Under the pieces are notes generated by a model. It did not search any database, was not told the origin of the DNA, and was given only the letters and a program-made list of their open reading frames with translations. From assembly GCA_902635515.1 (NCBI GenBank), contig CACPOD010000001.1, forward strand, positions 1 to 64,000: 64,000 bases of DNA, read 5' to 3'. The position numbers and the translations under genes are program-made. How positions within the stretch are numbered: the first letter of the stretch is position 1; every line of letters begins with the position of its first letter. This DNA comes from an uncultured Pelagibacteraceae bacterium. GTDB lineage: Bacteria; Pseudomonadota; Alphaproteobacteria; Pelagibacterales; Pelagibacteraceae. Positions 1-2,288 of the stretch are shown here, piece by piece.

Positions 1-29
1 GAAATAAATAAAAATATTAAATAATAATC

Positions 30-477
30 ATGATTAAACTATCAAAAAAAGACATAATAAACCTATTACCCCATAGAGAACCGATGTTATTGATAGACGA
101 ATTATATGATATAAAAAAAATTACATTCAGCTACAGCATTGGTAAATGTTAAAAAAAACAGTTTTTTTGTCCAAGGTCATTTTCCAGACCAGCCAGTAAT
201 GCCTGGTGTATTAATTGTTGAGTCATTTGGACAAGCTGCTGCTGCACTTACAGCTCATGGCTTGGATAAATCAACATATGAAGATAAATTAGTTTTTTTA
301 ATGGGTGTTGAAAAAGCAAGATTTAGAAATCCTGTTATACCTAATTGTAAACTTGAACTTAAAATTGAAGCTATCAGATCTCATGGTAGAGTTTGGAAAT
401 ATAAAGGTGAAGCTTTTGTTGAAGGAAAAAAGATGGCAGATGCTGTATGGTCAGCAACTATTGTAGATAAGAAATAA
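30..477 (+). CDS. fabZ: FabZ, 3-hydroxyacyl-ACP dehydratase, split by a +1 frameshift
   Basis: FabZ dehydrates 3-hydroxyacyl-ACP in type II fatty acid synthesis in the cytosol. An ATG at 30 opens a frame whose protein contains the family N-terminal motif LLPHREPMLLIDEL, but this frame stops at 150-152. The rest of the protein lies in another frame and carries GHFPDQPVMPG. Removing one A from the A8 run at 113-120 joins the two into an uninterrupted protein of about 148 residues, the normal family length, with catalytic His about 50 and Glu about 64. The downstream half alone could only start at a TTG at 139 and would lack the N-terminal strand and helix. The gene sits directly before lpxD. 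FabZ is normally essential, so a homopolymer sequencing error or polymerase slippage on A8 is more likely than true loss. Confidence 0.9.
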
Positions 478-528
478 ATAGCAATAAATCTTGATAACTT
501 ATTTTTAAATGCTTTGTTAAAAGTATTT

Positions 529-1509
529 ATGTTTAATCCATTCTTTAAAAATTATGGTCCAATATCTATTTTAGAAATTATAAAAATTTTAAATATAAAA
601 GTTGATAAACTAAACTCAAATCAAGAAATTACAGATATAAAAGATTTATATACTGCAAATACTTCAGATATTACTTTTTTTCATTCTAAAAAATATAAAG
701 AAATTGCTAAAGATACCAAAGCATCTTTCTGTATAACTACCGAAACTTTGAAAGATGATCTGCCTAAAAATTGTAAGCCATTAATTGTAGAAAATGTTTT
801 AGTTTCAGTATCTAATTTAACTTCCAAGTTTTATCCTGAATCTATAAATGATGATTTTGATGAAACTGTAATTTCTATTTCAGAAACTGAATTTAAAGAT
901 AAAGTTAAATTTGGTAAAAATGTTTTAATTGGGGATAATGTATCTTTAGGATCGAATTGCTATATAGGTCACAACTCCATAATTGAAAAAAATGTAAATA
1001 TTGGAAATAATTGCTCTATTGGATCAAACACAATTATTAGAAATACAATAATTAAAAAAAATGTAAGAATTTTAGACGGATGTGTTATTGGAAAACATGG
1101 ATTTGGATTTTTCCCTGTGAAAAATAAAAATTTAAGATATCCACATATAGGTATTGTTATAATTGAAGATAATTGTGAGATAGGGTGTGGAGCTACAATT
1201 GATAGAGGCTCTATGTCAAATACAATAATTGGAAAAAATACTTATTTAGATAATCAGATTCATATAGCTCACAATGTTAAAATTGGTGAAAATTCAATCA
1301 TAGCTGGACAAGTTGGTATAGCGGGTAGCTCTGTAATTGGAAACAATGTTAAAATTGGTGGACAAGCTGGAATTTCAGGACATCTTAAAATTGGAAACAA
1401 TGTTGAAATAGGAGGTGGTTCTGGTGTTATCAAAAGTATTCCTGACAATACAAAAGTAATGGGTTACCCAGCAAAAAATATTAAAGAATTTTTAAGAGAA
1501 AACAAATGA
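529..1509 (+). CDS. lpxD: LpxD, UDP-3-O-acylglucosamine N-acyltransferase
   Basis: LpxD adds the second hydroxyacyl chain, as an amide, to UDP-3-O-acyl-glucosamine in lipid A synthesis. The protein has an N-terminal uridine-binding domain (about residues 1-100) and then a run of hexapeptide repeats such as IGDNVS and IGHNSI that form a left-handed beta helix. His about 248 in QIHIAHNV is the expected catalytic base. I chose the ATG at 529 over an upstream in-frame TTG at 514; this gives 326 residues, slightly short for the family. It overlaps lpxA by 4 bp. In many relatives lpxD precedes fabZ, but here the order is reversed. Confidence 0.95.
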   Translation: MFNPFFKNYGPISILEIIKILNIKVDKLNSNQEITDIKDLYTANTSDITFFHSKKYKEIAKDTKASFCITTETLKDDLPKNCKPLIVENVLVSVSNLTSKFYPESINDDFDETVISISETEFKDKVKFGKNVLIGDNVSLGSNCYIGHNSIIEKNVNIGNNCSIGSNTIIRNTIIKKNVRILDGCVIGKHGFGFFPVKNKNLRYPHIGIVIIEDNCEIGCGATIDRGSMSNTIIGKNTYLDNQIHIAHNVKIGENSIIAGQVGIAGSSVIGNNVKIGGQAGISGHLKIGNNVEIGGGSGVIKSIPDNTKVMGYPAKNIKEFLRENK

Positions 1510-2288
1510 TTCATAAAACAGCAATTATAGACTCGAAAGCTAAAATTTCAGAAAATGTTAAAATTGGTCCTTATTCGGTCATAGGCCCAGATGTTGAAAT
1601 AGGTGAAGGTACAATTGTTCAGTCACACGTTAATATTACAGGACATACAATAATTGGAAAAAACAATATTATTTATCCATTCGCTTCAATTGGAAATGAT
1701 CCTCAGGATTTAAAATTTCAGGGCGAAAAAACAAGATTAGAGATTGGAGATAATAATAAAATTAGAGAGTATGTAACGATTAATCCAGGAACTAAAGGAG
1801 GTGGTGGATTAACAAAAGTTAAAAGTAATTGTTTATTTATGGTTTCTGCACACATTGCACATGATTGTTTTGTTGGTGATAATGTTATTTTAGCAAACAA
1901 TGTACCTTTAGGAGGTCATGCACATATAGGCGATAATGCAATTATTGGGGGTAATTCAGCTGTACAACAATTTACAAGAGTAGGTAAATCGGCAATGATT
2001 GGTGGTATGTGTGGTGTAGTTAGAGATATAATTCCTTATGGTATTGCACATGGAAACAGAAGTATTTTACAAGGATTGAATTTAATAGGTTTAAGAAGAA
2101 AAAATATTCCAAATAAAGAAATAATGACTCTAAGTGATGCTTATAAAGAAATTTTTAAGAACGAAAATTTAACAGAAAATTTAAGTAATTTATCAAATAA
2201 ATTTAAGAATAATGAATTAGTTGCAGAAGTTATTGAATTTATAGAAATGGATAAGAAAAGACCAATTTGTACTCCATTTTCAAAGTAA
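1506..2288 (+). CDS. lpxA: LpxA, UDP-N-acetylglucosamine O-acyltransferase
   Basis: LpxA catalyses the first committed step of lipid A synthesis, moving a 3-hydroxyacyl chain from ACP to the 3-OH of UDP-GlcNAc. The 260-residue protein is almost entirely hexapeptide repeats (IGPYSVIGPDVEIG and similar) followed by a C-terminal helical part, as in the family. The motif AHIAHDC holds the catalytic histidine (H119, equivalent to H125 of the E. coli enzyme). The motif GGHAHIGDNAIIGG is also typical. The ATG overlaps the lpxD stop (ATGA) and the stop is followed one base later by lpxI, so these genes are probably co-translated in one operon. Confidence 0.96.
   Translation: MIHKTAIIDSKAKISENVKIGPYSVIGPDVEIGEGTIVQSHVNITGHTIIGKNNIIYPFASIGNDPQDLKFQGEKTRLEIGDNNKIREYVTINPGTKGGGGLTKVKSNCLFMVSAHIAHDCFVGDNVILANNVPLGGHAHIGDNAIIGGNSAVQQFTRVGKSAMIGGMCGVVRDIIPYGIAHGNRSILQGLNLIGLRRKNIPNKEIMTLSDAYKEIFKNENLTENLSNLSNKFKNNELVAEVIEFIEMDKKRPICTPFSK

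What the first reader, a model, noticed from the sequence alone, without database searches (positions are those of the whole stretch)
30..477. fabZ split by one extra A in an A8 run
Two frames each code for half of a normal FabZ, and removing one A at 113-120 restores a 148-residue protein with the catalytic His and Glu in place. Because the enzyme is expected to be essential, this is a sequencing or assembly error, polymerase slippage correcting the frame in mRNA, or a real loss covered by another dehydratase. In AT-rich genomes with many A runs, transcriptional slippage is a serious option.
Basis: partly seen in the sequence, partly recalled or inferred. Interest (0 to 1): 0.55.

Follow-up and report, generated by a model that had tools for sequence, protein, structure and literature searches.

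The report
Split fabZ, probably an assembly error
A common fatty-acid gene looks broken by one extra A in this draft genome of an uncultured SAR11-type ocean bacterium, but the break lies at the tip of an assembled fragment and nearly all relatives examined carry the gene whole, so it is most likely a sequence error rather than biology.

Summary
In detail: an A8 run at 113-120 splits one FabZ (3-hydroxyacyl-ACP dehydratase) gene into two frames, 30-119 and 121-477. The window is the start of contig C1 of a 34-contig, 83%-complete genome, so the run lies about 115 bases from a contig end. At the homologous site 0 of 89 distinct relative loci has an A8; the longest runs are A7, in 27. The downstream piece is under strong constraint, much as in relatives. 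Among 142 genes of this contig that could be compared, fabZ is the only frame break found. Many A8-A12 runs stay in frame, one of them inside fabZ. Of 269 genus genomes with this FabZ, three are split by one extra base in an A or T run, this one included; a published error rate for a marine single-cell workflow (3 indels per 100 kb) predicts about 3.6. Best reading: homopolymer error at a contig end, about 0.88. Rivals: a fresh mutation in the sequenced cell (no MutS found in 21 of 21 genomes), slippage rescue, or loss covered by FabA. Reads and same-species genomes were not available.

The parts
1..29 (.). first bases of contig C1, directly upstream of fabZ (assembly end)
   Evidence: window is G000:C1:1-64000, contig length 165306
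30..119 (+). N-terminal piece of fabZ (frame of ATG 30; ORF runs to a stop at 150-152)
   Evidence: FabZ profile positions 3-26; ORF list
113..120 (+). A8 run at which the frame changes; relatives have A7 or shorter
   Evidence: run table of 89 relative loci
121..477 (+). C-terminal piece of fabZ with GHFP His and downstream Glu, other frame
   Evidence: FabZ profile positions 30-138; PF07977 80.7 bits; dN/dS much as in intact relatives
151..158 (+). second A8 run in fabZ, within the open downstream frame (codes NVKKNS)
   Evidence: run table, translation
514..1509 (+). lpxD, intact neighbour
   Evidence: TIGR01853 311.1 bits, cut-off 242.5
1506..2288 (+). lpxA, intact neighbour
   Evidence: TIGR01852 333 bits, cut-off 231.05

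Best explanation
The cell's fabZ is most likely whole. The extra A is a homopolymer insertion made during DNA amplification, library PCR, sequencing or assembly and left uncorrected because the run lies about 115 bases from a contig end, where few reads overlap. Shown: A8 in the assembly, two frames of one FabZ, contig-end position, at most A7 at the site in relatives examined, no relaxation of constraint. Inferred: that this genome is a single-cell assembly, that coverage is low at this end, and which step made the error.
For: Contig-end position: the run begins at base 113 of a 165,306-base contig; a single random break would fall within 120 bases of either end with probability 0.0015 (a post-hoc figure). 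0 of 89 distinct relative loci have A8 at the site; 27 have A7 there. Constraint much as in relatives. fabZ is the only break found among 142 comparable genes, 42,646 residues, of C1. Two other fabZ copies are split by T7->T8 in one other run, so breaks in this gene scatter over runs; three in 269 fits 3 indels per 100 kb published for a marine single-cell workflow (PMC6122165, passage; expectation 3.6). Named close relatives are mostly single-cell or similar Pelagibacteraceae assemblies.
Against: No reads were available, so A8 may be real. C1 shows fewer indels than the published rate predicts (1 found, 3.8 expected, P of one or fewer 0.10), so this assembly is otherwise clean. 25 other contig-end pieces showed no clear break by eye, though that scan also misses the fabZ break itself. 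The split copies in G046 and G323 are not at contig tips. MutS was not found, so real run-length mutations should be more frequent here than usual. The genome's origin as a single cell is inferred.
Confidence: 0.88

Rival explanations
1. A real, very recent A7->A8 mutation in the sequenced cell or its close kin: replication slippage in a lineage without MutS, not yet purged by selection.
For: PF00488 (MutS) not found in 21 of 21 genomes of the order, 11 of 14 controls ring; mutS and mutL loss reported for deep-sea SAR11 single cells (PMC12374537, passages). No further lesion in the gene and no relaxed constraint.
Against: An expected-essential gene broken in 3 of 269 genomes would need an implausibly high mutation rate at mutation-selection balance (inference); position at a contig end.
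Confidence: 0.07
2. A8 is real and the full protein is made by transcriptional slippage (loss of one A in the mRNA) or by a +1 decoding shift at the A-rich stretch.
For: AT-rich genome (28% G+C) with many A runs. Frameshifted poly(A)/poly(T) genes without accelerated evolution, some confined to one species, are proposed to be rescued in Blochmannia, and 30% full-length transcripts are quoted from earlier work (PMC3017870, passages). In Buchnera over half of single-base transcript deletions lay in runs and the rate rose with run length (PMC5574713, passages).
Against: The repair must be a deletion; in the same survey insertions prevailed in A/T runs, 16 of 57 Buchnera deletions lay in runs against 151 of 157 insertions, and no error restored a frame. 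No A8 at this site in 89 relative loci. 163 in-frame A8-A12 sense runs in ORFs of C1 (106 A8 and 57 longer) with no other frame break found. The shift needed is +1 or -2, not the common -1 type (recalled).
Confidence: 0.03
3. FabZ is really lost and FabA, or the C-terminal fragment alone, does the work.
For: Intact 170-aa FabA on C2 (TIGR01749 256.8 bits, cut-off 238.15). A TTG-started ORF 139-477 of 112 aa exists.
Against: Constraint is not relaxed. The complete genome G012 keeps a whole FabZ beside a 172-aa paralogue of FabA length, not typed by family. Single-contig genomes G012, G082, G298 and G385 keep a whole FabZ. No third enzyme of this fold found in G000, which is 83% complete. FabZ is reported essential in Pseudomonas aeruginosa (PMC12152623, search listing with start of abstract). 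The fragment lacks the conserved LPHREPMLLIDEL start.
Confidence: 0.02

Closest known systems
FabZ, 3-hydroxyacyl-ACP dehydratase (TIGR01750 / NF000582 / PF07977)
   Same: both pieces match consecutive parts of the profile; catalytic motifs present; beside lpxD and lpxA
   Different: split into two frames in this assembly; each piece alone stays below the curated NCBIfam cut-offs
Single-base indel errors of single-cell genome assemblies (marine single-cell workflow, PMC6122165, passage)
   Same: one-base insertion, at a contig end, at about the published frequency for this gene across the genus
   Different: not proven: reads not seen, and this genome's origin as a single cell is inferred
Frameshifted poly(A) genes with proposed slippage rescue in Blochmannia (PMC3017870, passages)
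   Same: AT-rich genome, single indel in an A run, no sign of gene decay
   Different: no RNA evidence; a transcript deletion would be needed; run of 8 while that paper speaks of tracts of 9 or more and, for visC, 11; no relative examined shares it

Membership tests
FabZ dehydratase | match to the FabZ/FabA fold family above its cut-off | tested here: met
   PF07977 80.7 bits, cut-off 23, on the downstream frame
FabZ dehydratase | match to the FabZ equivalog models above their curated cut-offs | tested here: inconclusive
   downstream piece 104.7 bits (cut-off 155.15) and 101.7 bits (cut-off 113); upstream piece 21.8 and 22.9 bits; neither fragment reaches the whole-protein cut-off, the unsplit protein was not scored
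FabZ dehydratase | one uninterrupted reading frame | tested here: not met
   frame changes at the A8 run in this assembly
Assembly-level indel error | reads disagree with the contig, or support it thinly | not testable with these tools
   no reads available
Assembly-level indel error | relatives lack the extra base | tested here: met
   0 of 89 relative loci have A8 at the site; no same-species genome available, best DNA match to fabZ 85%
Slippage-rescued frameshift | mixed run lengths in mRNA | not testable with these tools
   no RNA data
Slippage-rescued frameshift | out-of-frame run kept in related species (seen in some, not all, proposed cases) | tested here: not met
   PMC3017870 also proposes rescue for four genes frameshifted in one species only
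Pseudogene | relaxed constraint or further lesions | tested here: not met
   median dN/dS 0.077 over 11 relatives against 0.056 over 55 pairs of relatives; frame open from 121 to 477

The most novel reading that the evidence does not exclude
SAR11 cells, in which no MutS was found and whose genes hold many A8-A12 runs, carry out-of-frame run alleles even in essential genes at about 1% per gene, and survive because slippage in transcription or decoding supplies enough in-frame product. The three split fabZ copies (A8 here, T8 in G046 and G323) would be real snapshots of this.
Probability: 0.03. Interest if true: 0.6.

Novelty: not a real feature. Interest (0 to 1): 0.08.

Why it matters
If it is an error, as is most likely, the lesson is practical: single-base breaks in A/T runs of AT-rich draft genomes, above all near contig ends, should not be read as gene loss; about 1% of fabZ copies in this genus's assemblies show one (3 of 269). 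If it were real, an essential gene surviving a frameshift in a lineage without mismatch repair would be a notable case of frame repair.

Tried and rejected
Programmed -1 frameshifting: the downstream frame is +1 (or -2) relative to the start frame, so the usual A-AAA-AAG type of site does not serve (reading; motif recalled). Chance resemblance: rejected, both pieces match FabZ. Old pseudogene: rejected by dN/dS on 11 of the 89 relative loci, chosen among the closest. A genome full of breaks: not seen; fabZ is the only break among 142 of 182 G385 ORFs that matched C1. In the same call five queries were covered under 85%: fabZ, and four others at 27-59% identity without a second frame. A run-focused frame scan of C1 gave 102 frame changes, 4 with a run of 7 or more, all with a start codon near the stop; but that test does not discriminate well, because the known T8 breaks also have start codons near by and it misses the fabZ break, so it is weak. 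The same scan gave 2 such cases in 60 kb of G046, none in 37 kb of G323, 2 in 20 kb of the single-contig genome G298 and none in 40 kb of G012, so G046 and G323 are not shown to be error-ridden. General decay at contig ends: no clear break in 25 end pieces, 107,306 bases, judged by eye. Same-species DNA in viral contigs: exact 30-base pattern, no match. My first filter missed fabZ itself because the two pieces overlap on the query; redone.

Rows behind the base rate. One search lists 276 of 399 genomes; seven (G160, G176, G185, G352, G354, G394, G398) had only a weak, divergent hit and were dropped, leaving 269, the number that one search also gives. Besides three split by one base (G000, G046, G323), five copies are cut by a contig edge (G070, G115, G169, G215, G235) and two are joined to sequence that is not FabZ-like away from an edge (G045 before about residue 19, G359 before residue 115). 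G233 matches residues 3-137 of an open frame of 147 and was not followed. The remaining copies were not all read: one search lists about the best 155 places, without stops, and the rest were judged by their scores alone. Since the split G000 copy itself scored 1.9e-68 there, a break near either end of the gene could have been missed, so three is a lower bound.

Literature: no paper in the held library has both 'Pelagibacter' and 'transcriptional slippage', seen as listings, gave no paper whose title or abstract start deals with homopolymer errors in SAR11 single-cell genomes.

Full report
What is there. Bases 113-120 are eight A. The frame opened at ATG 30 gives MIKLSKKDIINLLPHREPMLLIDELYDIKK and then runs out of frame to a stop at 150-152. 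The frame from 121 gives LHSATALVNVKKNSFFVQGHFPDQPVMPGVLIVESFGQ and on to the stop at 475-477. The two pieces match consecutive parts of the FabZ profile, positions 3-26 and 30-138 of 141. lpxD (514-1509) and lpxA (1506-2288) follow, both above their curated cut-offs.

Where it is. The window is contig C1, bases 1-64000, of a genome of 1,124,921 bases in 34 contigs, 83.5% complete. So fabZ starts 29 bases, and the run about 113 bases, from the end of an assembled contig. Of the 80 named loci found by protein, the closest are nearly all uncultured Pelagibacteraceae with AG- or AH- isolate codes. Contig lengths tie two genus genomes to such records: G008 to AG-404-O17 (151,417 bases) and G029 to AG-919-F03 (5,510 bases). 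That these codes mark single-cell assemblies is recalled, and that the window's own genome is of this kind is inference.

Relatives. In a first sample 44 of 61 genus genomes have the gene, the window's own included. Of the 43 others, 42 show an open frame over the matched 112 residues and one (G046) is split; one of the 42, G045, proved later to be joined to other sequence before about residue 19. Over 89 distinct relative loci the longest A run in the homologous 24 bases is 7 in 27 loci, 6 in 30, and 5 or less in 32; none has 8. In 88 of the 89 the stop-to-stop frame holding both the PHR and GHFP motifs is 144-163 residues; the exception is G323, with 95. No same-species genome was found: the best DNA match to fabZ is 85%.

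Base rate. Of 399 genus genomes searched, 269 carry this FabZ. At least three copies are split by one extra base: this one (A8), and G046 and G323, both with T8 where the relatives printed beside them have T7 or an interrupted run. A benchmark of a marine single-cell workflow gives on average 3.0 indels per 100 kb (PMC6122165, passage); over 269 genes of 447 bases that predicts 3.6. This is a rough match, since not all 269 assemblies need come from that workflow. In G046 a frame change also falls at an A8 in lpxD about 0.7 kb from its fabZ break, where the window has A7; 60 kb elsewhere in G046 gave no clear case. A related workflow trims 100 bases off each contig end (PMC5519541, passages); if it was used here, the run lies roughly 215 bases from the raw end.

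Constraint. The downstream piece has dN/dS 0.036-0.147 (median 0.077) against 11 relatives; 55 pairs among those relatives give 0.022-0.133 (median 0.056). The window's values are slightly higher, its top value just above the relatives' range, but still show strong constraint. The gene was constrained until very recently, or still is.

Is this genome prone to breaks? 142 of 182 ORFs from a syntenic stretch of the single-contig genome G385 matched C1 over 42,646 residues; fabZ was the only frame break. At the published rate 3.8 would be expected, so C1 is if anything clean (P of one or fewer 0.10). ORFs on C1 hold 106 sense A8 runs and 57 of A9-A12, and a second A8 lies in fabZ at 151-158 within the open downstream frame. 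Eight A in a row is therefore not in itself disruptive. A frame scan of 25 contig-end pieces of this genome (107,306 bases) showed no clear break by eye, but it cannot see a break as close to an end as that of fabZ.

Slippage. To repair an extra A the transcript must lose one base (or gain two). In E. coli and Buchnera insertions prevail in A/T runs, deletions are rarely tied to runs, and no error restored a frame; on the other side, over half of the single-base deletions in Buchnera lay in runs and their rate rose with run length (PMC5574713, abstract and passages). Blochmannia vafer has eight genes frameshifted in poly(A) or poly(T) for which rescue is proposed, four of them in that species only (PMC3017870, passages). 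So slippage is not excluded, but nothing here points to it.

Loss covered by another enzyme. The genome has an ordinary FabA on C2 and no third enzyme of this fold was found. FabZ is reported essential in Pseudomonas aeruginosa (PMC12152623, listing with start of abstract). The single-contig genomes G012, G082, G298 and G385 keep a whole FabZ.

A fresh mutation is the best biological rival. MutS was not found in 21 of 21 genomes of the order while 11 of 14 controls rang, and loss of mutS and mutL in deep-sea SAR11 single cells is in print (PMC12374537, passages). Without mismatch repair, run-length mutations should be frequent. But an expected-essential gene broken in 3 of 269 genomes, and here within 120 bases of a contig end, is better explained by error.

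Verdict. Observation confirmed; most likely an assembly-level homopolymer error at a contig end (0.88). Interest is low. The reads of this genome would settle it.

Noticed in passing
L065 (G323:C6, locus about 1759-1766) and L033 (G046:C5, locus about 1700-1707): Two other fabZ copies are split by one extra T in the same T run (T8; the window has T7 at 293-299), and G046 also shows a frame change at an A8 in lpxD about 0.7 kb on.
   Followed up: partly
whole genome G000 and 20 relatives: No MutS (PF00488) in 21 of 21 SAR11-order genomes, against 11 of 14 controls; loss of mutS and mutL is already reported for deep-sea SAR11 (PMC12374537, passages).
   Followed up: partly
L178/L223 (G359:C13) and L226 (G045:C30): fabZ is joined to sequence that is not FabZ-like in any frame, away from a contig edge; possibly amplification chimeras.
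   Followed up: partly
G352, G354, G398, G176, G185 and G082 (L173-L177): A divergent FabZ-like protein (about 30% to the usual one, 41-57% to that of G352) occurs in six genomes. Five of them lack the usual FabZ and a close lpxA in their assemblies; the single-contig genome G082 has both FabZ types.
   Followed up: partly
window 30-2288 and G004, G005, G013, G018, G023, G031: Gene order differs within the genus: fabZ-lpxD-lpxA here and in 20 other genomes with one continuous match, lpxD-fabZ-lpxA in six others.
   Followed up: no
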